Shown: in pieces, positions 1,343 through 22,655 of the stretch
Numbering within the stretch: the first letter of the stretch is position 1
Layout: every line of letters begins with the position of its first letter
IMG/VR virus record: IMGVR_UViG_3300025128_000372
Location: 1 to 22,655 of that record
DNA length: 22,655 nt
From: a virus
Reading direction: 5' to 3' (one strand)
Position numbers and translations under genes: made by a program
The notes under the pieces: model-generated
Database searches by the model: none
What the model was told of the DNA's origin: nothing
Seen by the model: only the letters and a program-made list of their open reading frames with translations

Positions 1343-1777
1343 ATGGCTAAAAAATCAAGGGTTAAGCGCATTGGCAGGCCAACAAAAGAGCTAGATCCAA
1401 ATGTCGTATATCGTCTGTGCTTGCTGGGACTATCTCAACAAGAACTTGCAGATACGCTGGGAATCTCACTGGCTACTGTAAAGAACAAGCGTAACCCAGA
1501 CCATCCATCACACGATCCAGAGTTTTTAGCCGCATGGACGCGAGGCACAACCGACGCTGATAGCCGAGTAGCTCTGAGTATGTATGAGCAGGCGTTATCC
1601 GGCAATGTAACTGCTGGTATGTTCATCCTGAAAAACAAACGGGCCGCGAACTGGCAGGAGAAACAGCACATAGAGCATAGCTCCGAGACCCTGAGCGATT
1701 TAATCGGGAAACTAGAGGATAGTTACTACGAGCAGGAAGAAGAGTTAAATGGCAAAGAAACAAGCCATCAACACTGA
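1343..1777 (+). CDS. terS: Terminase small subunit
   Basis: This protein would recognise phage DNA for packaging and recruit the large subunit. The 144-residue length is typical. The N-terminus (residues 3-13) is basic, followed by a helix-turn-helix at about 20-50 with the pattern LSQQELADTLGIS then a recognition helix. The middle (about 60-105) has the usual small-terminase pattern of an F-x-x-A-W-T-R-G segment, an AL-x-x-YEQAL-x-G segment and a LKN-x-x-A-x-x-W segment. The tail (about 115-135) is acidic. The ATG at 1343 has GAGAGGG at 1332-1338. The gene overlaps the large terminase gene by 29 bases. Such overlap and order are standard for terminase pairs. The family is assigned by pattern and context; an unrelated HTH regulator is the less likely alternative. 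Confidence 0.85.
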   Translation: MAKKSRVKRIGRPTKELDPNVVYRLCLLGLSQQELADTLGISLATVKNKRNPDHPSHDPEFLAAWTRGTTDADSRVALSMYEQALSGNVTAGMFILKNKRAANWQEKQHIEHSSETLSDLIGKLEDSYYEQEEELNGKETSHQH

Positions 1778-3143
1778 TGCGGTAGAGCGGCTCAAGGTCT
1801 GGCGTGAACACCCAGACATATTCGTACAAGACCTGTTCAAATGTCATATCGAGGAGTGGCAACGAGAAGCGCTGAAGAGCATAGCGACTCACGATAAGGT
1901 AAGTATCCGGTCTGGTCACGGGGTCGGTAAGAGCGCCCTGTTAAGCTGGGTAATATTATGGTTTATCTCTACCCGCTCGGATGCCAGAGTACCGTGTACT
2001 GCACCATCGAGCCATCAGCTATCAGACGTACTGTGGGCCGAGCTACTGAAATGGCTGAGAAAAGCGCCAGACTGGTATCAGTCACAGTTTGAAATGTCCG
2101 CAGACAGGGTGAGGATGGGTTCTAGCTATGCTGTGGCCCGTACAAGCAGGAAAGAACAACCCGAAGCATTGCAGGGATTCCACGCAGAAAACTTGCTGTA
2201 TATCGTAGACGAAGCTAGCGGCATCCCAGAGAACGTGTATGAGACGGCAGAGGGAGCGCTGTCAGGGGAAGGGGCCAAGATTATGATGACGGCTAACCCG
2301 ACAAGGGTATCCGGTTACTTCTATGACTCGCACCACAAGATGAGGAACCGATGGAAAACAATGGTAGTGCCGTGTACGGATAGCACTCAGGTATCGAAGA
2401 CCTACATCGAGGATATGCTGGCGCGATGCGGTAACGACCCAGACTCAGACATTTACAGGGTGCGCGTTCTGGGGGAGTTCCCTAAGAGCGAGTCCAACGG
2501 TGTTATTCCGCTCGACCTAGTGATAGCGGCATATGATAGACCTGTTGAACAGATCAAGACAGTAATGCCCGTCTGGGGCTTGGACGTAGCCAGATTCGGC
2601 ACTAACAAGACAGCCTTAGTGAAACGTCACGCAAATATTGTAAAGTCCGTAGAGACGATTACAAACAGGGATACGATGTATGTGGCTGGTTGGGTGATGC
2701 AACAGTATGAGGACGCGAACAGTGACGATAGACCAGCCGTGATTAACATCGATAGTATCGGCGTGGGGGCTGGGGTAGTAGACAGGATGAGAGAGCTAGA
2801 TGTTCCTGTCCAGGGAATCAATGTAGGTGAACAGCCATCCGGCAAGGACCGCTATGCAAACCTGAGAGCAGAGCTATGGTGGAGAGCCAGGGAATGGCTA
2901 GAGCAACGGGACACACGGGTAGAGAGCGAGGATCTAGGCGCTGAACTAACCGAGGTCCAGTTTAAGATTACCTCCACGGGAAAAATACAGATCGAATCAA
3001 AAGATGATATGCTAAAGCGCGGTGTGACATCACCGGACATCGCAGACGCTTTTGTGCTGACATTTGCTGGCGCAGAGCGCAGACGGGGGCTAGGCAGGTA
3101 CGCCGTTAAAGAACGCAAACAATCAGCAGGGTGGGCGGCATGA
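1749..3143 (+). CDS. terL: Terminase large subunit (ATPase-nuclease DNA-packaging motor)
   Basis: This is the motor that pumps DNA through the portal and cuts the concatemer. At 464 residues it has the two-domain layout of the family. The N-terminal ATPase carries a Walker A motif GHGVGKS (residues 56-62) and a Walker B VDEAS with D154-E155. A coupling-type MTANPT segment follows. The C-terminal RNase H-like nuclease has acidic residues at expected places: D279 in GLDVARFG, D335 in NIDSIG, and D430/D433 in SPDIADAF. The start overlaps the small subunit gene, and the stop overlaps the next start as ATGA (3140-3143), so translation is coupled both ways. All key catalytic positions appear intact. 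Confidence 0.95.
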   Translation: MAKKQAINTDAVERLKVWREHPDIFVQDLFKCHIEEWQREALKSIATHDKVSIRSGHGVGKSALLSWVILWFISTRSDARVPCTAPSSHQLSDVLWAELLKWLRKAPDWYQSQFEMSADRVRMGSSYAVARTSRKEQPEALQGFHAENLLYIVDEASGIPENVYETAEGALSGEGAKIMMTANPTRVSGYFYDSHHKMRNRWKTMVVPCTDSTQVSKTYIEDMLARCGNDPDSDIYRVRVLGEFPKSESNGVIPLDLVIAAYDRPVEQIKTVMPVWGLDVARFGTNKTALVKRHANIVKSVETITNRDTMYVAGWVMQQYEDANSDDRPAVINIDSIGVGAGVVDRMRELDVPVQGINVGEQPSGKDRYANLRAELWWRAREWLEQRDTRVESEDLGAELTEVQFKITSTGKIQIESKDDMLKRGVTSPDIADAFVLTFAGAERRRGLGRYAVKERKQSAGWAA

Positions 3144-5713
3144 GCGTATTAGACGTACTTGGAAGGCAAATAGGGGAAGGCTTGTTAGCGCCACCGCAGA
3201 GAATAGGGGAGCCAACTCCTACAAGGAATGTGCTAGGGATTAATCACCCGCTTGCAGAATCCAGCCCAGTTGCCCGCATCCCGATATCGATGATTCCAGG
3301 CGTGGGAAGCTTCGCCTCCGGTTATATGCAGGAAGATGTTGCAACGTTAGGCCAACCAGAAGAAACATTGTTTAACATTTCGCCTTCGCCTGACAGCACG
3401 AGAGATCCTCGATATTTCCCATTGGCAGACGGCGCAGATATAACAAACCATGACCTAGCACGATTTGGTCTGGCGACCGACGCATGGGATTGGGTTCCTG
3501 GGGCGGCGGTAGTTGGAGGCATGGCAACCACAGCAGGGGCGCTTGGACGAGCGCTGAAAGGCGATGCCGTGTCCAGCGATGCTTCCGTAATGGATGCGCT
3601 TGGACCATTTATGATTGATCCAAAAGCGAGCATGGTGTCGCAGGTAGGGGATCAAGGCGTACCTAAAGTTGATGCCGTGAGTGCTCAAAGGGCCGCAAGA
3701 AATGTAGACGCGCCTACGGTTCAAGTATCGAGCGAGGCATTGCCATCTACAGGATTGATAGAGGGCAGGATGATCAAGCAAATGCCGATTGACCTACAGG
3801 ACGAGTACGAGAGGCAGGTGCAGGAGATAATCGGTCCATCGCTATACGACAAGCTAGGGCTAACGGTTGTTGATGAGGCAATAGCGCCGTCGAAGTACGA
3901 CGGGCATCAGGGAAGGTCATTACAAACGATGCTGGAGGCGCAGACAGAGGTCAACGAAGCAGGCGACATTGTTTTAACGCAAGCTTATAAGAAAAAAATA
4001 TTAGAACTGGCGGCGGCGCGAGGGTTTTTACAAGACCAAGACGCTGTGACTATGAACTTTGCTGTTCCCTTGAGGTCTTCAGAGGACGTAGGTGTCGGCT
4101 ATATATCGTATGGTCGGGTTATTACCGACGATGAAATGCGCTTTTTCGACGAAACGTTAGATGAGTTAGGCGCAAAAGATGATACAATAGCGCGGGTCAC
4201 TACACCGAAAGGCATTAAGTTTCTGAACCTTGGAATGGATGGCGAGGAGTTCCAAGACTTGATGCAAACGGTTGGTGACAAAGCAGACCAAAAGATAGCA
4301 TTATTCAAAAATGATTTAGGCGAGGAGATGGACTATGGCTATATCGGAGGATCAGACTGGCGCGGCGGGCAAGAAGCCTATCAAAAGATCGCGGCTGATA
4401 TGGGGGACGCAGGAGATGGCAAACGAGGCCAACCTTGGTGGAGTGCAGATGACGAGTTCATTTCGCTCAAGGAACGCATCCTCGAACACAGAAGGCAATT
4501 CGTCAAGGACAACCCGCTCCCAGAAAAAACAATAAGAAATATTGCGGACGAAAACGATGCCCGTTACCAAAGAGAAGGTCTAACTCTTGAGTTAAAGGAC
4601 CAATCCGACGAGGCTATGGATGTCTTGGCAAGCCGTATGTTTGACGAGGCATTAGGCGTTCTTCGCGGCGGAGACAGGACAGGCAGGGGTTGGTATACGA
4701 GCAGGTATGACCAAGCATTAGGTGAGCTTGCCGTAAAAATACCGGAGCTAGACCTAGAGACCAAGACCCAGAAAGACCTGTACACTACGCTGACAGGGAT
4801 ATTCTCTGACGGCACGGCTATCCAGCCCAACACAGAGCTTGCGGTTAATCAGTACAGGGATTTTCTACGCACGGGTAAAGTCAATGCGATGACTCCCACA
4901 GCGGGCGGTGAGCGAAACAAATCATTTCGCAATAACCTCAACAAGCTACAGGACTTAATAGACGACAAAGGTCTAGAAGGGGCTATGGAGTTTCTGGATG
5001 GGTTCAGCACAACCAGAGACCTACAGAAACTAACGAACCGCAATATCGGTTATTTGCAAGACCAGCGGTTGCCCAACTCCGTCATCTTTGGCGACAAAGT
5101 GGGCGTATTCATGGCGAACCTTAAAGGACACCCAGACTATCTGACAATGGATAGGTGGTGGAATCGCACGGTGCATCGCTTGCGTGGGCATATGGGGGAT
5201 GAGCCAAGTGAAAAAGGACTCAAACGGTTTAGGGCATTGCTCGGTCAAGAAAAAGAAGCGGAGTTAATGCGAAAGGCTGGGCATGGGCCGCAATATACCC
5301 CAGCGGCTCGAAGGAAAACATTGACCAAAGAAGCACGGCGGTTATCGAAGCAATATGGGAAAAAAGATTTTAAGGACGGAACCCCTCTAGAAGTAGCGGC
5401 TAACACTATCTTTAAGGCCGAGATGGGTTTACGAGATGTTGCGAAAAGCGGCGGAGAGAAGAAATTTCAATTAGACCTAGCGCGAAAAGTAGCAGAGCGT
5501 TTTAGACAAGACACAGAATATTCAGATATGACGGCGGCGGATTTACAAGCCATTATGTGGTTTGCAGAGAAGCGGCGCATGAAAGAGTTTGGAAGTAGGG
5601 ATGCGAAAGGCTCAGAGGAGCTAGACTTTAGGGATGCGGTGGAGAGATTGCCCCCAAACGTGCTAGACCCCTCTTTGAAAAATGCCCCTGGACCAAGCCC
5701 ATTAAGCCCATAA
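3140..5713 (+). CDS. Large polyvalent-type phage protein with HhH-GPD-like segment, 857 residues
   Basis: No single known enzyme matches the whole protein. I start it at the ATG at 3140 (ATGA overlap with terL) rather than the GTG at 3131. Residues 1-60 are predicted partly amphipathic with a glycine-rich stretch, and a short Ala/Gly hydrophobic segment lies near 120-140. The middle is charged and mostly helical. Residues 648-683 contain G-x-K-V-x-x-F-x-x-N-L-x-G, then L-T-M-D-R-W-W-x-R. This resembles the core of phage HhH-GPD-like (DNA-glycosylase-fold) domains I recall from large phage polyvalent proteins. A later MTAADLQAIMWFAEKR segment also recurs in that kind of protein. The C-terminus is basic and then proline-rich. 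Its place between terminase and portal suggests a virion-associated or co-injected protein. The domain call is recalled from sequence pattern and needs a profile search. Confidence 0.55.
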   Translation: MSVLDVLGRQIGEGLLAPPQRIGEPTPTRNVLGINHPLAESSPVARIPISMIPGVGSFASGYMQEDVATLGQPEETLFNISPSPDSTRDPRYFPLADGADITNHDLARFGLATDAWDWVPGAAVVGGMATTAGALGRALKGDAVSSDASVMDALGPFMIDPKASMVSQVGDQGVPKVDAVSAQRAARNVDAPTVQVSSEALPSTGLIEGRMIKQMPIDLQDEYERQVQEIIGPSLYDKLGLTVVDEAIAPSKYDGHQGRSLQTMLEAQTEVNEAGDIVLTQAYKKKILELAAARGFLQDQDAVTMNFAVPLRSSEDVGVGYISYGRVITDDEMRFFDETLDELGAKDDTIARVTTPKGIKFLNLGMDGEEFQDLMQTVGDKADQKIALFKNDLGEEMDYGYIGGSDWRGGQEAYQKIAADMGDAGDGKRGQPWWSADDEFISLKERILEHRRQFVKDNPLPEKTIRNIADENDARYQREGLTLELKDQSDEAMDVLASRMFDEALGVLRGGDRTGRGWYTSRYDQALGELAVKIPELDLETKTQKDLYTTLTGIFSDGTAIQPNTELAVNQYRDFLRTGKVNAMTPTAGGERNKSFRNNLNKLQDLIDDKGLEGAMEFLDGFSTTRDLQKLTNRNIGYLQDQRLPNSVIFGDKVGVFMANLKGHPDYLTMDRWWNRTVHRLRGHMGDEPSEKGLKRFRALLGQEKEAELMRKAGHGPQYTPAARRKTLTKEARRLSKQYGKKDFKDGTPLEVAANTIFKAEMGLRDVAKSGGEKKFQLDLARKVAERFRQDTEYSDMTAADLQAIMWFAEKRRMKEFGSRDAKGSEELDFRDAVERLPPNVLDPSLKNAPGPSPLSP

Positions 5714-5725
5714 AGGAGTATTATC

Positions 5726-5830
5726 ATGGCATACGGTGGATATAAAGCGACGACAAAACCCAAAGCAAAAGCCCCCAAAAAAAAGAAAAAGACGAAGAAA
5801 ACGACGATGAAGGGCAAAAAAAGCAAATAA
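5726..5830 (+). CDS. Tiny lysine-rich basic protein, 34 residues
   Basis: A 34-residue frame with a good ribosome-binding site (AAAGGAG just after the previous stop) starts 13 bases after that stop and ends 10 bases before the portal gene. It begins MAYGGYK, and 15 of its 34 residues are lysine, including a run of five at 18-22. Such a peptide should bind nucleic acid or an acidic surface. It could condense DNA in the capsid or act in packaging, but this is inference from charge. An A8 run (5777-5784) next to A5 makes the reading frame sensitive to slippage or sequencing error. Conserved spacing on both sides argues that it is real. Confidence 0.6.
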   Translation: MAYGGYKATTKPKAKAPKKKKKTKKTTMKGKKSK

Positions 5831-5840
5831 GGAAAGCGTC

Positions 5841-7940
5841 ATGACAACAGCGCGACAAGTACAAAGTTGGTTTGAGTCCGCGAAAGACGACACGGGAGAG
5901 TGGCGCTCGGAAGCCAAAGACCTGTATGACCTTGTGGCTTGTCGGCAGTGGACAGCGGCAGAAGAGTCTGAGATTAAGGAAAAGCGGCGTATTCCTATCG
6001 TAATGAACAGAATAGCGCCATTTGTTGACTCTATCGTAGGACAGCAGATTAATAACCGCAAAGAGGTTAGATTCCTCCCCAGAGAGACATCTGACACGCA
6101 GTTAGCGGATATGTATACCGAGGCTTCTCGATGGGCGGACGATTTATGTGATGGTGAGGATGAAGTAACCGATGCTTTCACCGACCTTGTGATAAGCGGC
6201 ATGGGCTGGACAGAAACCCGCATGGATTACAGCACCGACCCAGAAGGTAAGCTGATTACAGCGTCACGCATAGACCCTATCGAGATGTACTGGCCGACTT
6301 CAGACACATCAAGAAATCTTGATAATGGCAAGTGGGTTATCAGGGCGCGGAAGTATCCGGCAGACGAGGCCGAGGACCGCTGGCCTAATATCAAGAATGT
6401 GGCGGGAGAATGGACCGCAGACGATATAGATATGCGCCAACCGCATGATGCGACCAATGCGTGGAAGTATGAGTCGGACAAGTCTAGTTATTTTCCGCAC
6501 GAGCAGATGTATCTTGTGCTACAGGTGCAGTATTACAAAGATGTGCCGATGTACCGAGTGGCTGACCCAGACAGCGGTCAGATTTTAACCGTTAGCCCTG
6601 ACCGTTTAAGCAAAATGCGCGACTACCTGGAAGATATGGGCGTGAAGTTTGTGAAGATCACGCAAAGAAGGTACTTCCAAGCGTTTGTGTGCGGCTCTGA
6701 GCTACTGGAGGATGAGGAAGCCCCAACTCAAAAGGGGTTTACGCTGAAGTGCATGACGGGCAAAAGAGACAGGAATAAGCGCCAATGGTACGGCGTTTGC
6801 AGGGCGCTAAGAGACCCGCAAAAGTTCTCTAATAAGTTCTTTAGTGACATCATGTTTATCCTGGCGACCAATAGAAAAGGCGGTGCGTTTGTAGAAGCTG
6901 ATGCGCTGGCAGATCCAAGAAGGGCAGAGGAAGACTGGGCTAGTCCAGATGCATTGATTAAACTCAACGCAGGCGGTCTCAATAAGGTCCGAGAGCGCGA
7001 TGCGGGCGTATTTCCAGCAGGGCTAGAGCGTTTGATGCAGTATGCGATAGACGCTGTTCCGGCAACGTCCGGCGTAAATGCCGAGATGATAGGCATGGCA
7101 GACAGGAATCAGCCAGCAATCCTAGAGGAATCACGCAAAATATCCGGCCTTACCATACTAGCACCGCTCTTTGACTCTCTAAAAAGACACCAGAGAGAGC
7201 GTGGGCGCATTGTTCTGGACTTTCTAAACAGGTTTATAGCAGATGGGCGGGCAATCAGGATAACAAGTCCGACAGGCGACAGAATGAGCGTACCGTTTAT
7301 GCAAGACCCACAAGCGGCAACCTATGACATTATCGTAGATGAGATGCCGAGTACGCCTAACAGCAAGGCTGAGACGTTTAACGTGCTAACTAAACTCATG
7401 CCCATCATGCAATCAATGGGAATGTCGCCTCCGTCAGATTTAATTAACTATATGCCGCTCCCCGCTACTCTAGTGGAGAAATGGCGTGGAGAACTGGCAC
7501 AGCGCACAGAGCAACCTGACCCACAACAGCAGATGCTACAGGCGGCGACTGAGTTTGAGATGATGAAGCAACAGGCGAATCAACAAGAAGTGCAGATGAA
7601 ATCCCAGCTAGAAATGCTCAAGCTTGAATTTGAGAAAGAAAAGACGGCGATAGCTACGCAGACAAATCAACAGGATGCCGCGCTAAAACAGGGGCAGTTA
7701 CAGCTAGAAGCGCAAATAAAGAGCAAAGAGGCGGAAATCAAGGCGCAGGAAGCGCAGATCAAAGCCGCAGAGCTAGAATTGAAACGGCAGGAGTTGGCGC
7801 TAAAGAGTCAGTCTATGCAAATTGAAGCTACCGCAGACATGATGGACGCACAGGCTAATCTGATGGAAGCCGAGGCCGATATGATAGAGGCGGGAAAGCC
7901 GCCAGACTCCGAAACTAACATTACCGTAAACATGACCTGA
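5841..7940 (+). CDS. Portal protein (P22 gp1-like)
   Basis: The portal forms the dodecameric ring at one capsid vertex through which DNA enters and leaves. At 699 residues it is close to the P22-type portal size. The N-terminal region (about 1-85) has the usual pattern: a charged helix, DLYDLVACRQW, then IPIVMNRIAPFVDSIVGQQ and a basic NNRKEVRF segment. The middle holds the stem/wing region, with VPATSGVNAEMIG near residue 405 and an IRITSPTG loop region near 470. From about 560 the protein becomes a long Gln/Glu/Lys-rich coiled coil, with five near-perfect heptads at 624-658. This matches the C-terminal barrel of P22-like portals. ATG 5841 is preceded by GGAAAG. The following scaffold and capsid genes support the call. 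Confidence 0.92.
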   Translation: MTTARQVQSWFESAKDDTGEWRSEAKDLYDLVACRQWTAAEESEIKEKRRIPIVMNRIAPFVDSIVGQQINNRKEVRFLPRETSDTQLADMYTEASRWADDLCDGEDEVTDAFTDLVISGMGWTETRMDYSTDPEGKLITASRIDPIEMYWPTSDTSRNLDNGKWVIRARKYPADEAEDRWPNIKNVAGEWTADDIDMRQPHDATNAWKYESDKSSYFPHEQMYLVLQVQYYKDVPMYRVADPDSGQILTVSPDRLSKMRDYLEDMGVKFVKITQRRYFQAFVCGSELLEDEEAPTQKGFTLKCMTGKRDRNKRQWYGVCRALRDPQKFSNKFFSDIMFILATNRKGGAFVEADALADPRRAEEDWASPDALIKLNAGGLNKVRERDAGVFPAGLERLMQYAIDAVPATSGVNAEMIGMADRNQPAILEESRKISGLTILAPLFDSLKRHQRERGRIVLDFLNRFIADGRAIRITSPTGDRMSVPFMQDPQAATYDIIVDEMPSTPNSKAETFNVLTKLMPIMQSMGMSPPSDLINYMPLPATLVEKWRGELAQRTEQPDPQQQMLQAATEFEMMKQQANQQEVQMKSQLEMLKLEFEKEKTAIATQTNQQDAALKQGQLQLEAQIKSKEAEIKAQEAQIKAAELELKRQELALKSQSMQIEATADMMDAQANLMEAEADMIEAGKPPDSETNITVNMT
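7710..7814 (+). repeat. Five tandem heptads at the portal C-terminus
   Basis: These 105 bases encode five consecutive 7-residue units of the form A/L-x-I/L-K-x-x-E/S (residues 624-658 of the portal). The DNA copies have diverged, but the protein period is exact. This is a regular coiled coil, as expected for the long helical barrel of a P22-type portal. Confidence 0.7.
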
Positions 7941-10532: not shown

Positions 10533-10555
10533 GGGGGTGGCGAAAGTCACTCCCC
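10533..10555 (+). promoter_or_regulatory. GAAA-capped hairpin in the leader of the glycosyltransferase cassette
   Basis: GGGG (10533-10536) pairs with CCCC (10552-10555) and GTG with CAC across one bulged T. A G-U and a C-G pair close a GAAA tetraloop (10542-10545), a stable GNRA type. The stem covers the in-frame GTG at 10537 and sits just before the AGAGGA site at 10564-10569. This favours the ATG at 10579 as the real start. The hairpin may end transcription, mark RNA processing, or regulate cassette translation. Confidence 0.45.
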
Positions 10556-10578
10556 ACCTTTATAGAGGACAGGACTAT

Positions 10579-12045
10579 ATGGGTAAACTGATAGGCGATG
10601 TCATGGAGGATCTGCAAAAGACGCAAGTCGAGTGCAGTGAGAACAATGACTTCGAAAAGCTACAGGTCGTTATAGACGGCTACCATCAGTTATTGTTGGA
10701 AGCCCCACACGATCCCTACATCATATTTCAACTCGGTACAGCACACCTCCAGAAGCAAGATTACGGCGTAGCGCTGGTCATCCTGCAACGGGTTCTTGAC
10801 TACCTGCCGGATAACTCCCATGTGTGGAGTAACATCGGTTGTTGTTATCGAGCAATACATATGCTTCCCCAGGCTAGAGACTGTTTTATGAAGTCTTTGA
10901 TGTTGGAGGAGAAAGCAGAAACCTACTCTAATCTTGCATCATCTTATGTCAATGAGGATGCGCCAGAGGAGGGATGGCCGTATGCCATTAAAGCGATGGA
11001 GCTAGAGCCGGAAACAGCGAAGGCAAGATGGAACGGAAGTCTGTTACAGCTAGAGATGCGGAACTGGAAGGAAGGCTTTGCTCTGTACGATGCGGGGTTT
11101 TTCTGTGGTGAGCGTGGGCTGAGAAGCTATAGCAATGATACGCCGGACAGCACGGACTGGTTTGACGGCAATCTGCAATCAGGCAAAACGCTGGCGCTCT
11201 GGGACGAGCAGGGGCTAGGGGATAGGCTATTAGCGGCAGGATTGCTCCCAAAGCTCGAAAAAGCGAATCTCGACATCATCTTAGAATGTCATCCGAGGCT
11301 AGAGGCTATCTACAAGCGGTCTTTTCCGTGGATTAACAAGATATATCCGACAGCCAAGAAATCGTTCATAGAGTGGCCGAAAGAACATCCGGTAGGCCAG
11401 AAATCTGCGGTATTCAGCCTTGCTAAGCACTTCTGGAAAACAGAAGCGGATATGAGCACACGGTCTTATTTAAAGCCGAACCCAGAGCTACTGGAAATGT
11501 ATCGCAAGCAGTTCGAGGCGCTTGGTCCGCCGCCCTACTACGGGTTGAGTTGGAAAGGTGGCGCACTAAAAACCAACACGCAATATCGGTCAATGAAGCT
11601 GGGCTGGTTCGAGAACGTGATAAAACGAGCGGGCGGAACGTGGATCTCGATGCAGTACCATGAGGATGCTAAAGAGAAAGTGGAACGGATGAGGGAGAAG
11701 ACAGGGCTTCCGATATTCCATTGTGATGCGGCGCAGGAAATGGATTACGACCATACGCTGTCCGCTCTGGCGGCACTAGACCACACGATTACTTGCTGTA
11801 ACACGGTAGTTCATACCTGTGGCGCGGCGGGTTTGAAATGCACGGTGCTTGTGCCAAAGAAACGGGCTTGGCGCTATCCGGCTGGCCCGTACTTCCCCTG
11901 GTACTCCGACGATATCGTCATGTTCCACCAGACCACAGATCAAGAGTGGAAAGAGGTTTTAGAGGTTTTAGGAGGGTCGCTCGAAAATGCGTACAATCAT
12001 AATAGGTCACGGTCCATCGATTCTAAGACAGAAACTCGGCAGTGA
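10579..12045 (+). CDS. TPR-repeat glycosyltransferase (GT9/GT41-like)
   Basis: Two modules are visible. Residues about 20-170 are tetratricopeptide-like helical repeats, with units such as DPYIIFQLGTAHLQKQDY and NSHVWSNIGCCYRAI. Residues about 210-470 are a GT-B-type sugar-transferase domain of the kind found behind TPRs in bacterial and phage proteins. It has LALWDEQGLGDRL near 205-217, GLSWKGG near 322-328, and a donor-site region reading ITCCNTVVHTCGAAG, then KKRAWRYPAGPYFPWYSDD. I start at ATG 10579 behind AGAGGA rather than GTG 10537, which lies in a hairpin. The product has 488 residues and would be cytoplasmic. It begins a four-gene overlapping cassette; its end overlaps the next gene by 59 bases. 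Sugar and acceptor are not predictable. Confidence 0.75.
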   Translation: MGKLIGDVMEDLQKTQVECSENNDFEKLQVVIDGYHQLLLEAPHDPYIIFQLGTAHLQKQDYGVALVILQRVLDYLPDNSHVWSNIGCCYRAIHMLPQARDCFMKSLMLEEKAETYSNLASSYVNEDAPEEGWPYAIKAMELEPETAKARWNGSLLQLEMRNWKEGFALYDAGFFCGERGLRSYSNDTPDSTDWFDGNLQSGKTLALWDEQGLGDRLLAAGLLPKLEKANLDIILECHPRLEAIYKRSFPWINKIYPTAKKSFIEWPKEHPVGQKSAVFSLAKHFWKTEADMSTRSYLKPNPELLEMYRKQFEALGPPPYYGLSWKGGALKTNTQYRSMKLGWFENVIKRAGGTWISMQYHEDAKEKVERMREKTGLPIFHCDAAQEMDYDHTLSALAALDHTITCCNTVVHTCGAAGLKCTVLVPKKRAWRYPAGPYFPWYSDDIVMFHQTTDQEWKEVLEVLGGSLENAYNHNRSRSIDSKTETRQ

Positions 12046-12637
12046 GATAGATCGCCACGATCAAATAATCAGGATGAAGCGCCATTCGGATCTACCGAAG
12101 CTTCGCCCAGACTTGTACGGAAGCAGAACAGACGTAGTGGTGTCATCCATGACGCTTGGACGAGTAATTATGGATGCCTGGGAAGGTGTAAAAGACTTCT
12201 GGCTGTTTGACGATACCCGTACTGAGAACGAAAGCGATAAAACATTACCGCAGGATGCTAACGTTTATTGCGATAGGGATGTATGCCGCTTCTGGCGTAC
12301 TCAGTATAGACGCTTGCGAAAAGACTATGTGAAGGCCGACAGTCAAAAGCTGATAGACGGTGTATCGGACAACAAAGGACATTTACATCCGTCTGCGGGA
12401 ACCCATGCGATTTTGTACGCCATGCATAAAGCGAACCCAGAAGAGATACAACTGCACGGGTTCGACAACATCCTCTCCGGCACTCACGACTGGTCAATTA
12501 CACGGGGCCATGAGTATAAGGAATACCCAGACCACAACTGGCCCGCCGAGTCACAGATGTTAGACCTGCTGTGCAGGGTGTACGGATACCAGATGGAAAA
12601 AGGCGATACAGGGAGCGCTTTACTCAATGCAATTTAA
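11987..12637 (+). CDS. GT29 / sialyltransferase-like glycosyltransferase
   Basis: The 216-residue product resembles the core of family GT29 sialyltransferases. A start I-I-G-H-G-P-S-I (residues 4-11) precedes G-x-x-ID-x-x-D-x-IIRMK (about 18-31), the nucleotide-sugar-binding L-motif pattern. HPSAGTHAILYAM (134-146) and LHGFDN (156-161) later match the S-motif region (P-S-x-G and G-F-D). It lacks the signal anchor of eukaryotic enzymes and should be cytoplasmic. Such compact versions occur in phages and bacteria, where the actual donor is often unknown, so sialic acid transfer should not be assumed. ATG 11987 has a strong AGGAGGG at 11970-11976 inside the previous gene. It overlaps the next gene by 11 bases. 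Confidence 0.72.
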   Translation: MRTIIIGHGPSILRQKLGSEIDRHDQIIRMKRHSDLPKLRPDLYGSRTDVVVSSMTLGRVIMDAWEGVKDFWLFDDTRTENESDKTLPQDANVYCDRDVCRFWRTQYRRLRKDYVKADSQKLIDGVSDNKGHLHPSAGTHAILYAMHKANPEEIQLHGFDNILSGTHDWSITRGHEYKEYPDHNWPAESQMLDLLCRVYGYQMEKGDTGSALLNAI

Positions 12638-13874
12638 GTTTGTAACGTCGATGAACCGCCGTATGTACGATGAATACGGCGAGATAATGATGGATACTTT
12701 TAGTCAGTTCTGGCCCGCAGGCGAGTTACACGTTTACACGGAGGATGAGTTCTTCCCCTACAATAATTCGCGCATTGTCTACCATGACTTAATGAAGGTG
12801 GATGGCATACAGAATTTCCTCGACGGCGTGTCCCACTTCCCAATATTTCACGGGCTTGTAAACGAGACGATCCAGTACAAATATAACGTCAATGCGTTTT
12901 GCCGAAAGGTATACGCGCAGATCGATGCTGCGAAGGACTACAAAGGCTACCTATTCTGGATAGACACAGACATCAGGACGTTCAGGGCGATCCCCGCAGT
13001 AAGGCTCGAAAACTGGATGAGTGGTAACTTTATGGCCGTTATGCGGCGTAAAACATGGCATCTATGTAGTTCTTTTGTTGGCTGGGATTGCGCCCATTCG
13101 TTCAGCGACGGCTGGTTCAAGCATTACAAGAATATGTACGACTCTGGCGGCATATTCATGTTAAGCCAATGGGACGACGCATTTGTGCTAGAGAAGACGC
13201 TAGAGGATTTGGTAGGTGTTAATGACATAGCGGAGAATGTGACCGGCGAGGGGCCGTATAACGTGTTTGACGGGGTGTTTGACAAGTATGCGACACACGA
13301 CAAAGGGCCAACGAAACACGCAGTCAGGTACATACATTTACTGGAAATCGTCAAACAGATGCAACCGAAAAGAATACTGGAAGTCGGAACGTGGAATGGC
13401 GCGAGGGCAAGGCAAATGCTGGAGCTTAGTCCGAAGTCAGAGTATTTTGGGTTTGACTTGTTCGAGGAGGCTAGCGACGAGACGGACAAGGCAGAGAAAA
13501 ACGTGAAAAAACACTACAGTTTAGAAGAGGTGAAAGAGCGCCTAAACGATGTGAACGCAACGCTGTATCGCGGCGACAGCAAACAACAGCTAAAAAGATA
13601 CCTGAAAGAGCATGGCGAAAATTCGGCAGACTGTGTTTTTATCGACGGCGGGCATAGCGTGGAAACCATAAAAAGCGACTACAAGTACGCGAAAAAGATA
13701 GTGCAGAAAGGCGGAATTGTCATTTTCGATGACTTCTATACGGAAATGCCGGAAGAAGAACTAAAACAGTATGGGGCGCAGGAAGTGTTGGAAGGCGAAG
13801 AATATTACCTGATGCCTACCAGGGACCATGTAAAAGGCGGAGGCAGAGTGCAAATGGCGGTAGTCCAATGTTAA
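12627..13874 (+). CDS. Fused glycosyltransferase - SAM-dependent methyltransferase
   Basis: A 415-residue two-domain enzyme. Residues 1 to about 220 look like a GT-A sugar transferase. They contain a central DxD metal site D113-T114-D115 in YLFWIDTDIRTF, a start FKFVTSMNRRMYDEYG, and DSGGIFMLSQWDDAFVLE near 171-188. Residues about 240-415 are a class I methyltransferase of the Methyltransf_24 kind: motif I ILEVGTWNG (250-258), DLFEE after it, FIDGGH (338-343), and VIFDDF (365-370). The simplest reading is that one chain adds a sugar and methylates it or a neighbouring glycan. The gene is uninterrupted, with no frameshift at the junction. It overlaps both neighbours (11 and 7 bases). Function is inferred from motifs. 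Confidence 0.78.
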   Translation: MQFKFVTSMNRRMYDEYGEIMMDTFSQFWPAGELHVYTEDEFFPYNNSRIVYHDLMKVDGIQNFLDGVSHFPIFHGLVNETIQYKYNVNAFCRKVYAQIDAAKDYKGYLFWIDTDIRTFRAIPAVRLENWMSGNFMAVMRRKTWHLCSSFVGWDCAHSFSDGWFKHYKNMYDSGGIFMLSQWDDAFVLEKTLEDLVGVNDIAENVTGEGPYNVFDGVFDKYATHDKGPTKHAVRYIHLLEIVKQMQPKRILEVGTWNGARARQMLELSPKSEYFGFDLFEEASDETDKAEKNVKKHYSLEEVKERLNDVNATLYRGDSKQQLKRYLKEHGENSADCVFIDGGHSVETIKSDYKYAKKIVQKGGIVIFDDFYTEMPEEELKQYGAQEVLEGEEYYLMPTRDHVKGGGRVQMAVVQC

Positions 13875-14572
13875 AACAAGCAGACGTATACATCGGGTTT
13901 GACCCGTCAGAGTCGGTAGCGGCATCGGTCCTACAGCACTCGATCAGGGCTAGGTCATCTATTCCGGTGCGGGTCACGCTATTGATGCTGGACCAACTGA
14001 GAGAAATCCATAAAAGAGAAAGACACCAGTTGCAAAGCACGGAGTTCTCATTTACCCGTTTTTTAACACCGTATCTGAATCGCTACTCGTCACACTCTAT
14101 ATATATGGACTGCGATATGCTGATGCTTGGGGATATAGCGGACCTATATCAAGAAGCGGAGCAAACGTATGCTCCCGTCAGTGTGGTCAAGCACGACTAC
14201 AAGCCCGAAAACACGGTGAAAATGCTAGGCCAAAAACAAACGCAGTATGAGAAAAAGAACTGGTCATCGTTGATGGTGTTCTGGGGAAAGCACTACGACT
14301 GTATGCATCTAACGCCAGAAGTAGTGGACGAGGAGTCAGGGCTGCATCTGCATCAGTTCGCGTGGGCCACTGACGTTGGAGAAATAGACGGCAGGTGGAA
14401 CCACTTGGTTGGGTACGATGAAAGACCACTTGAAGATATAGCTATGTTACACTGGACAGAGGGCGGTCCGTGGTGGGATCGTTACAGCAACACCGAATAT
14501 TCAGATATTTGGTTTGAAGAAAAAGAGAGGATGGAACAGAGCTACGAGCGACCCAAGGCGGTGACAGCATGA
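13868..14572 (+). CDS. Glycosyltransferase with DxD motif (GT8-like)
   Basis: The 234-residue product reads as a small GT-A transferase. The start VYIGFDPSES (residues 7-16) and STEFSFTRFLTPYL (about 57-70) precede a metal-binding D81-C82-D83 in IYMDCDMLML. W-S-S-L-M-V-F-W (about 131-138) follows, and MLHWTEGGPWW lies near the end (about 195-205), a common closing motif of GT8-like proteins (histidine plus GG-P-W). It has no membrane segment. It is the last of the four sugar genes: its ATG overlaps the fusion gene by 7 bases and its TGA overlaps the next start as ATGA. Donor and acceptor are unknown. Exact CAZy family is a judgement from motif spacing. Confidence 0.75.
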   Translation: MLKQADVYIGFDPSESVAASVLQHSIRARSSIPVRVTLLMLDQLREIHKRERHQLQSTEFSFTRFLTPYLNRYSSHSIYMDCDMLMLGDIADLYQEAEQTYAPVSVVKHDYKPENTVKMLGQKQTQYEKKNWSSLMVFWGKHYDCMHLTPEVVDEESGLHLHQFAWATDVGEIDGRWNHLVGYDERPLEDIAMLHWTEGGPWWDRYSNTEYSDIWFEEKERMEQSYERPKAVTA

Positions 14573-20940: not shown

Positions 20941-22655
20941 ATGTCATTTATCAAAAACACAAAAGATGGCGCTTATATAAAATTTACGCATGGCCCTGAA
21001 AGGGGGAATTTATATAAGTACAGCCTTGATGATGTCAAACAGGGAACAGTGCAAAGCGAGTTTGACAACTACAATGCAAAGTACGAGTTTCAGCCGACAG
21101 ACAGGCAACAAATAGCGGCAGGGGTTCAAGGAGCGACGTTTGGATGGGGTGACGAATTGCAAGCATTTTACGGTGCGGCATTAGACAAGGTTTTTGCAGG
21201 AGAGGACTTTTCCGATAGCTATGTGGCGTTGCGAGACGCTTATCGTGATGAAGTAGAATCTTACGAGCAAAGTGACCCTCTTGGATATACCGTGAACGAG
21301 GTGGCAGGGTCGTTGCCGACAGGCTTTGGGATCGCTATGCAAATGGCAAAAATACCGAAAATAGCGACGGCGTTACAGGGCGGCTGGAAAAGCAAACAAG
21401 CGTTAAAAGCGTCTGCGGTAATTGGCGCGACTGAAGGAACAATATACGGCGCTGGGGTTGCTGGAGGAGGCTCCCCAGTGATACAGAAAGACCCAAGGAC
21501 GGGAGAGATAACACAAACGGAAGATGTGCTTTCGTCGCCATTGTCACAGGGCTTGACTACTGCCGGATCTGGCTTGGGGGGAGCCGTTGGAGGGCCGCTA
21601 GGACAAACTGTGATTGGCGCAGTTGGAGCGGCGGCTGGATATACCGGAAGAAAGCTGGGAGATGCGGTATTAGCCTTAAGCAATATGCTAAAAGAACGCA
21701 GTCAGCGCGTAGATATATCAATTCCAACAGCGGACACGATCTTAAAAGATGTTTTGTTACACACAGACGCAACAGAGGACGAAGTTTTCGCATGGTTGCG
21801 AAATAACCCAAAGTCTACTCTTGCGGACTTTAATGACGCCATGCAGAAAATGGGGCAAACGGTAGCGGCGAAATTGAATATGCCAGACAATTATCTGGAG
21901 TTTTTTTCGGGGCGAGATACTACTGCAATCGACAGGATCATGCTTCCCGTGAGAAAGCACTTTGGAGGTGTCGTAGAATCCGGCAGAACACTGTCGCAAA
22001 TAGCAGAGGGCAGAGAGGCGTTAGCGAAACCGCTATATGCTCAAGCAATGGAAGAGGGTGTAGAAAATACGCCTGTGTTAAGACAAATATTCGAGCATAT
22101 GAAAAAACATACGCCAGAGAGACTAAACAAATCAAGAAGGCTAGGGCTGGAACACGCTTTAGCAAATAGCCTTCCCATCGACGACGAGGCGCTAGGAACC
22201 GCATTGCCGACGTTGCGGTGGTGGCAAGCTATTTCCCAGCAGTTAGATGACGACATCGGAACAGCTATACGCGAAGGAAAAGGTTTCGAGGTGGCAAATT
22301 TAGTAGGGATAAAAAAACGAATAACGAATGAGTTATACGCCCAGAACGATGCGTATAGGCAGGCGAACGCTATATGGCAGAACAGCAAGCATATGGAAAA
22401 CATGGTAGATGCGGGGAGGGATCTGTATAAAAACAAAAAGTTAAGCGAAATTTTCGCAGATTCAGAAGATATAAAAAATCTAAGCCCACGAGACAAACAG
22501 CTATTCATGTTGGGTTTCGGTGAGTCTATAGAAAACAACTTAAGCTCGATAATTGGCACGGGAGATTTCGGTGTTATGGCCGGATCTATGAAAACCAGAT
22601 CGTTTTTAACAAAAGCAATGGAAGAAAAATTAAGATTGCTCTTGCCGGATGAAGC
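20941..22655 (+). CDS. Large internal virion / DNA-ejection protein, N-terminal part (571+ residues)
   Basis: The frame opens at ATG 20941 behind AAGGAAAGG (20926-20934) and runs off the right edge without a stop. The N-terminus has a short lysine/aromatic segment, then GVQGATFGWGDELQAFYGAALDK (about 57-80) and SYVALRDAYRDEVESYEQSDPLGY (about 89-113). These are typical of the start of large phage ejection or tail-associated proteins. Two Gly/Ala-rich hydrophobic stretches follow (about 120-142; about 204-237), and the rest is long and helical with many charged residues. No lytic transglycosylase motif is visible in the part present; one could lie beyond the edge. By position it would replace P22 gp16 or gp20. 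Confidence 0.7.
   Translation, partial: MSFIKNTKDGAYIKFTHGPERGNLYKYSLDDVKQGTVQSEFDNYNAKYEFQPTDRQQIAAGVQGATFGWGDELQAFYGAALDKVFAGEDFSDSYVALRDAYRDEVESYEQSDPLGYTVNEVAGSLPTGFGIAMQMAKIPKIATALQGGWKSKQALKASAVIGATEGTIYGAGVAGGGSPVIQKDPRTGEITQTEDVLSSPLSQGLTTAGSGLGGAVGGPLGQTVIGAVGAAAGYTGRKLGDAVLALSNMLKERSQRVDISIPTADTILKDVLLHTDATEDEVFAWLRNNPKSTLADFNDAMQKMGQTVAAKLNMPDNYLEFFSGRDTTAIDRIMLPVRKHFGGVVESGRTLSQIAEGREALAKPLYAQAMEEGVENTPVLRQIFEHMKKHTPERLNKSRRLGLEHALANSLPIDDEALGTALPTLRWWQAISQQLDDDIGTAIREGKGFEVANLVGIKKRITNELYAQNDAYRQANAIWQNSKHMENMVDAGRDLYKNKKLSEIFADSEDIKNLSPRDKQLFMLGFGESIENNLSSIIGTGDFGVMAGSMKTRSFLTKAMEEKLRLLLPDE

What the first reader, a model, noticed from the sequence alone, without database searches (positions are those of the whole stretch)
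3140..5713. Large polyvalent protein with an HhH-GPD-like segment between terminase and portal
The 857-residue protein has no single recognised function. Its segment at 648-683 (G-x-K-V-x-x-F-x-x-N-L-x-G, then L-T-M-D-R-W-W) resembles phage HhH-GPD-like domains, which share the DNA-glycosylase fold. Such a domain encoded between packaging and portal genes could act on phage DNA during packaging or on host DNA after injection.
Basis: inference. Interest (0 to 1): 0.6.

Follow-up and report, generated by a model that had tools for sequence, protein, structure and literature searches.

The report
DNA-glycosylase-fold domain in phage protein
A phage gene between the DNA-packaging and portal genes makes a large protein, probably injected into the host with the phage DNA, whose C-terminal half is predicted to fold like DNA-repair glycosylases and keeps their two catalytic residues; what it does to which DNA is untested.

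Summary
An 857-aa ORF (3140-5713, +) overlaps the terminase large-subunit stop by four bases and precedes the portal. The described motif is at aa 651-674 (Lys653, Asp671). AlphaFold2, run on 48 relatives, gives a confident all-helical model of aa 440-857 (pLDDT 91, pTM 0.86). In VIA-align its top 14 rows are all HhH-GPD superfamily (OGG, MUTYH, AGOG, QNG1, phage PUGT; Z 9.9-6.4), and the next row falls to 4.4. Lys653 and Asp671 are kept in every relative where the alignment covers them (105 of 107 rows), with the Lys-Asp spacing of endonuclease III. The domain is widespread: 226 viral contigs. Elsewhere it is mostly part of 2300-3800-aa proteins, several with polyvalent-protein domains (LPD22/23/38, ART-PolyVal), encoded among ejection and tail genes. 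So "polyvalent protein with an HhH-GPD-like domain" is supported. Function is inferred: most likely a DNA base-excision or base-modifying enzyme delivered with the genome. Lys and Asp do not prove glycosylase activity, since the phage DNA transferase PUGT has both. The only Pfam family hit, DUF7178, is below its cut-off, and the searched text of the 2017 polyvalent-protein survey names no glycosylase. Domain 1 (aa 187-440) remains unassigned.

The parts
3140..5713 (+). 857-aa polyvalent-type protein, ATG overlapping the TerL stop
3140..3697 (+). variable N-terminal region (aa 1-186); L002 carries about 200 extra residues here and L003/L005 have unrelated N-termini
3698..4459 (+). Domain 1 (aa 187-440), begins at conserved SSEALPSTGL; alpha/beta model, found only in the window's clade (L001-L006)
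4622..5629 (+). HhH-GPD-like domain (about aa 495-830)
   Evidence: AF2 model m3ca08e9e988e; VIA-align range 56-391 of the model; alignment A2
5087..5167 (+). helix-hairpin-helix and catalytic-motif core FGDKVGVFMANLKGHPDYLTMDRWWNR (aa 650-676): Lys653 (codon 5096-5098), Asp671 (codon 5150-5152), Arg676
1749..3143 (+). terminase large subunit (upstream neighbour)
   Evidence: phrog_2
5841..7940 (+). portal protein (downstream neighbour)
   Evidence: phrog_156

Best explanation
The gene encodes a short member of the phage 'polyvalent' protein class: a multidomain protein made with the structural genes, probably packaged in the head and delivered into the host with the DNA. Its C-terminal domain (about aa 495-830) is an HhH-GPD-superfamily domain. 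The helix-hairpin-helix binds DNA; Lys653, at the start of the second hairpin helix, and Asp671, at the N-terminus of the next helix, are placed like Lys120/Asp138 of endonuclease III and Lys249/Asp268 of OGG1. Most likely it acts on bases in DNA (flipping, then excision via a Lys Schiff base or a related transfer) during or just after genome entry, for example removing damaged bases from the incoming virion DNA. Shown here: the ORF, conservation, the predicted fold, the multidomain architecture and the gene context of relatives. Inferred: packaging, injection, catalysis and substrate.
For: Confident AF2 model (pLDDT 91.1, pTM 0.86). VIA-align: TmOGG2 3n0u Z 9.9 (191 aligned, rmsd 4.2), QNG1 7ugk 9.0, mOGG1 7.8, MUTYH 7.5, AGOG 7.4, PUGT 8z2n 7.2; rows 1-14 are all HhH-GPD and row 15 is an unrelated chain at 4.4. 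In the model, helix 213-222 carries K214 (Lys653) and helix 232-243 starts at D232 (Asp671), as in EndoIII (from general knowledge of that structure). Lys and Asp present in all 105 covered rows of 107, spacing 18 (96 rows) or 19 (9 rows); Nth proteins fetched here also show K to D = 18 and D+5 = R. The Nth profile aligns to FTxLxxITSDG with a score above all 30 column shuffles (27.1 against a maximum of 22.8). dN/dS about 0.16 for this domain between the window and L001 or L002. Relatives sit in 2300-3800-aa proteins with LPD22/23/38, ART-PolyVal or methyltransferase and beside tail, lysozyme/endolysin or internal virion protein genes. Polyvalent proteins were proposed to be injected with the DNA (PMC5512222).
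Against: Sequence profiles alone are not significant: hhalign to Nth probability about 5%; DUF7178 below its cut-off; no PDB sequence hit; no significant Foldseek hit in PDB. Z 9.9 is below the level at which helical folds can be trusted on score alone. Lys and Asp also occur in PUGT (GFKV...FD). No proteomics shows packaging. No substrate or partner gene was identified.
Confidence: 0.5

Rival explanations
1. It is a DNA base-modifying transferase of the PUGT/ADDT kind (HhH-GPD fold, but it builds hypermodified pyrimidines instead of excising bases), marking phage DNA against restriction.
For: The fold match includes PUGT 8z2n (Z 7.2). PaMx11 gp46 has a very similar hairpin, GFKVADMVDRVLGKPVSFD, against GDKVGVFMANLKGHPDYLTMD here.
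Against: PaMx11 encodes a putative thymidylate synthase and a 5-hmdU DNA kinase (HMUDK_hel) near gp46. None of PF00303, PF18723 or PF18724 is found in 13 records carrying the domain, including two complete phages. The PF18724 (ADDT) model does not reach this protein.
Confidence: 0.12
2. It is an enzyme of this fold aimed at the host: an injected glycosylase or lyase that breaks host DNA or acts on nucleosides (as QNG1 does), to block defence or redirect metabolism.
For: QNG1 is the second-best fold match (Z 9.0). Some homologues place the domain in one chain with ART-PolyVal, a predicted effector domain.
Against: The phage's own DNA would need protection, and no protection gene was recognised in the window. 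The ART domain is absent from the window protein.
Confidence: 0.15
3. It is a non-catalytic DNA-binding or structural module using the HhH-GPD fold, part of the internal core or ejection machinery.
For: The gene sits among structural genes; relatives sit among ejection genes.
Against: Lys, Asp and many polar residues (GWY, SDG, DxQAxxWxxEK) are invariant or nearly so across relatives mostly 22-33% identical to the window domain, which is typical of an active site.
Confidence: 0.17
4. The fold match is an artefact of comparing helical proteins, and the domain belongs to an unrelated all-helical fold.
For: Foldseek finds nothing significant in PDB; Z is under 13.
Against: Fourteen HhH-GPD entries of several families fill the top ranks, with a gap to 4.4; the Lys-Asp spacing and their positions at helix starts fit as well.
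Confidence: 0.06

Closest known systems
HhH-GPD superfamily DNA glycosylases (endonuclease III, OGG1/OGG2, AGOG, MutY)
   Same: Predicted fold; hairpin Lys and downstream Asp at EndoIII spacing (18); Asp at the N-terminus of the next helix; Arg at D+5
   Different: No significant sequence-profile match (no PF00730 hit); domain of about 340 aa with its own invariant motifs (GWY, DxQAxxWxxEK); embedded in large phage structural-module proteins
DUF7178 (PF23802)
   Same: Sub-threshold HMM match over the hairpin-Asp region in 45 of 50 relatives
   Different: Below the gathering cut-off wherever scores were shown; only about 66 of 193 profile positions matched in the window protein
Amino acid:DNA transferase PUGT, phage PaMx11 gp46 (PF18724)
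   Same: Same fold class; GxKV hairpin with downstream Asp
   Different: Lys-Asp spacing 16; sits in a 5-hmdU modification gene cluster that is absent from the relatives searched here
Phage polyvalent proteins (Iyer et al. 2017, PMC5512222)
   Same: Homologues are giant multidomain proteins with LPD22/23/38 and ART-PolyVal
   Different: The main text of that survey does not contain the word 'glycosylase'; the window protein is short and carries no catalogued LPD or ART domain

Membership tests
HhH-GPD superfamily | overall helical HhH-GPD fold | tested here: met
   predicted model; top 14 structural matches all HhH-GPD, Z 9.9-6.4 (a prediction, not a solved structure)
HhH-GPD superfamily | helix-hairpin-helix with GxK and downstream catalytic Asp | tested here: met
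   Lys and Asp in all 105 covered rows of 107, spacing 18-19; residue-level superposition not available
HhH-GPD superfamily | significant profile match (PF00730); a practical marker, often missed by remote members | tested here: inconclusive
   no PF00730 hit; hhalign to Nth probability about 5%, but above all 30 shuffles
DNA glycosylase (activity) | base excision or AP-lyase activity | not testable with these tools
   needs a biochemical assay
DUF7178 (PF23802) | score above the gathering cut-off of 27 bits | tested here: not met
   18.6 bits for the whole protein, 21.1 for the domain alone
ADDT/PUGT (PF18724) | match to the family model | tested here: not met
   no hit to P0001 or in 13 relative records
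ADDT/PUGT (PF18724) | accompanying 5-hmdU pathway genes | tested here: not met
   no PF00303 or PF18723 in 13 records, two of them complete; the others may be fragments
Polyvalent proteins | several disparate domains in one chain, with LPD/ART-type domains | tested here: inconclusive
   met in homologues; the window protein itself has two conserved domains but no catalogued LPD
Polyvalent proteins | packaged and injected with the DNA | not testable with these tools
   gene context only
Phage SAM lyase (for Domain 1) | SAM-lyase fold clearly above background | tested here: inconclusive
   Z 7.8, but AcrB and other ferredoxin-like chains reach 6-7

The most novel reading that the evidence does not exclude
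A virion-delivered DNA glycosylase/lyase: a widespread, unnamed HhH-GPD clade that phages pack into the head as part of polyvalent proteins, so that base excision (repair of the incoming genome, or attack on host or modified DNA) starts at entry, before any phage gene is expressed.
Probability: 0.3. Interest if true: 0.75.

Novelty: new variant of a known kind. Interest (0 to 1): 0.52.

Why it matters
Hundreds of phage contigs encode this domain, mostly inside giant proteins of unknown role. A likely fold and an active-site pair make it testable: two point mutants and an incision assay would show whether phages inject a base-acting DNA enzyme. It would add an activity not named in the searched text of the 2017 polyvalent-protein survey, and would help interpret DUF7178.

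Tried and rejected
Foldseek against PDB gave no significant hit; only the second-look aligner showed HhH-GPD. PDB sequence searches gave nothing. DUF7178 was not found in Prochlorococcus phage P-SSP7, so no stand-alone reference member was obtained. hhalign to MutY and ADDT profiles was no better than shuffles or weak (MutY was not shuffled). The LPSTG in SSEALPSTGL resembles a sortase motif, but it is fixed only in the window's clade at the start of Domain 1, and I read it as part of that domain. Domain 1 as a SAM lyase: Z 7.8 is not separated from unrelated ferredoxin-like folds, so left unassigned. DNA-level similarity to cultured phages: none. No promoter or terminator signal above chance around the gene. 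A literature search for DUF7178 found nothing.

Full report
Observation. The ORF at 3140-5713 (+) encodes 857 aa; its ATG overlaps the stop of the large terminase gene (ATGA, 3140-3143). PHROGs assign the neighbours: small terminase, large terminase, [this gene], portal, then the major capsid protein and tail/virion structural proteins. The window is a whole IMG/VR record of 22,655 bases.

Relatives. A scan of viral contigs with the whole protein gave 57 loci; a scan with the domain alignment gave 226 confirmed relatives, the best 80 kept. Nine loci came from genome assemblies, including a Polynucleobacter contig and a Zixiibacteriota chromosome. L001 and L002 are close relatives (95% identity in the C-terminal domain), and L002 has the same size and order of TerL-like, polyvalent and portal-like ORFs. 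L003-L006 share aa 190-837. Most others share only about aa 458-837, and there the segment lies inside proteins of mostly 2300-3800 aa. Several of these carry LPD22, LPD23, LPD38, ART-PolyVal or a methyltransferase domain, the signature of polyvalent proteins (PMC5512222). Their genes sit beside tail, lysozyme/endolysin or internal virion protein genes.

Fold. The only relevant Pfam signal is DUF7178: 18.6 bits for the whole protein against a cut-off of 27, but seen in 45 of 50 relatives. AlphaFold2 on 48 aligned sequences gives a confident helical model (pLDDT 91.1, pTM 0.86). Foldseek against PDB finds nothing significant. The VIA-align second look ranks 14 HhH-GPD entries on top (TmOGG2 9.9, QNG1 9.0, mOGG1 7.8, MUTYH 7.5, AGOG 7.4, PUGT 7.2, lowest 6.4), after which Z drops to 4.4. 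Z alone would be weak for a helical protein; the exclusivity and the gap are the argument.

Active-site pair. Lys653 starts a helix in the model and Asp671 is the first residue of the next. Their spacing is 18, as in the Nth proteins fetched here (LPGVGRKTANVVLN...AVDTHIFR), and Arg at D+5 is shared. In 107 rows (89 unique sequences), all 105 rows where the alignment covers both positions have Lys and Asp; the other two are a partial row and a row whose alignment starts late. A profile comparison with Nth is insignificant by probability but exceeds all 30 column shuffles, and it aligns FTxLxxITSDG with the Nth segment FELLIAVLLSAQATD. The combined Nth+MutY profile aligns Lys with Lys and Asp with Asp, again without significance. 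The domain is under purifying selection (dN/dS about 0.16).

What the pair does not show. The phage DNA transferase PUGT (PaMx11 gp46) has a similar hairpin Lys and Asp (GFKV...SFD, spacing 16), so the pair marks the superfamily and not glycosylase activity. PaMx11 encodes a putative thymidylate synthase and a 5-hmdU DNA kinase nearby. Neither those families nor ADDT is found in 13 records carrying the domain here, two of them complete. A transferase acting on 5-hmdU-derived bases is therefore disfavoured but not excluded.

The rest of the protein. Aa 1-186 is variable. Domain 1 (aa 187-440) starts with SSEALPSTGL and is confined to the window's clade in the loci held. Its model is fair (pLDDT 82.7). 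Its best structural matches, phage SAM lyases at Z 7.8, are not separated from unrelated ferredoxin-like folds, so it is left unassigned. Foldseek finds similar folds in other large phage proteins, some annotated as polyvalent.

Mechanism. Shown: reading frame, context, conservation, predicted fold, multidomain architecture of homologues. Inferred: that the protein is packaged and injected (from context and the 2017 proposal), that the domain is catalytic (from invariance), and that its substrate is a base in DNA (from the superfamily). I favour base excision on the incoming genome, because entry is when virion-carried damage must be met and phage genes are not yet expressed; this preference is inference.

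Novelty. The text of the polyvalent-protein survey held here contains no 'glycosylase', and DUF7178 has no paper in the library. A stand-alone HhH-GPD protein has been annotated in a phage before (Streptomyces phage Sf3 gp35, PMC5336643). I rate this a new variant of a known kind.

Noticed in passing
5726-5830 (+): 34-codon ORF with a Shine-Dalgarno-like AAAGGAG, encoding MAYGGYKATTKPKAKAPKKKKKTKKTTMKGKKSK, a Lys-rich peptide identical in L002; it may bind DNA. In L001 the sequence after the polyvalent gene is different.
   Followed up: partly
10537-14572 (+): Cassette between the capsid and tail genes: TPR protein, GT29 sialyltransferase-like protein (PF00777, E 7.6e-7), Methyltransf_24 protein and a 234-aa protein without a Pfam hit; looks like surface-sugar genes inside the structural module.
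   Followed up: partly
20941-22655 (+): Second large structural-module protein, cut by the window end; matches phrog_5880 (unknown function) and weakly a tape-measure family.
   Followed up: no
L002:2779-5988: Close relative whose protein ORF is 1070 aa, with about 200 extra residues between the N-terminus and Domain 1: gain or loss of a segment at the Domain 1 boundary.
   Followed up: partly
PQ492659.1 record header (L148): Limnohabitans phage DC33 is labelled Inoviridae, but its 39-kb genome with a giant (about 3100-aa) protein resembles the podovirus MW202722; probably a taxonomy mislabel.
   Followed up: no
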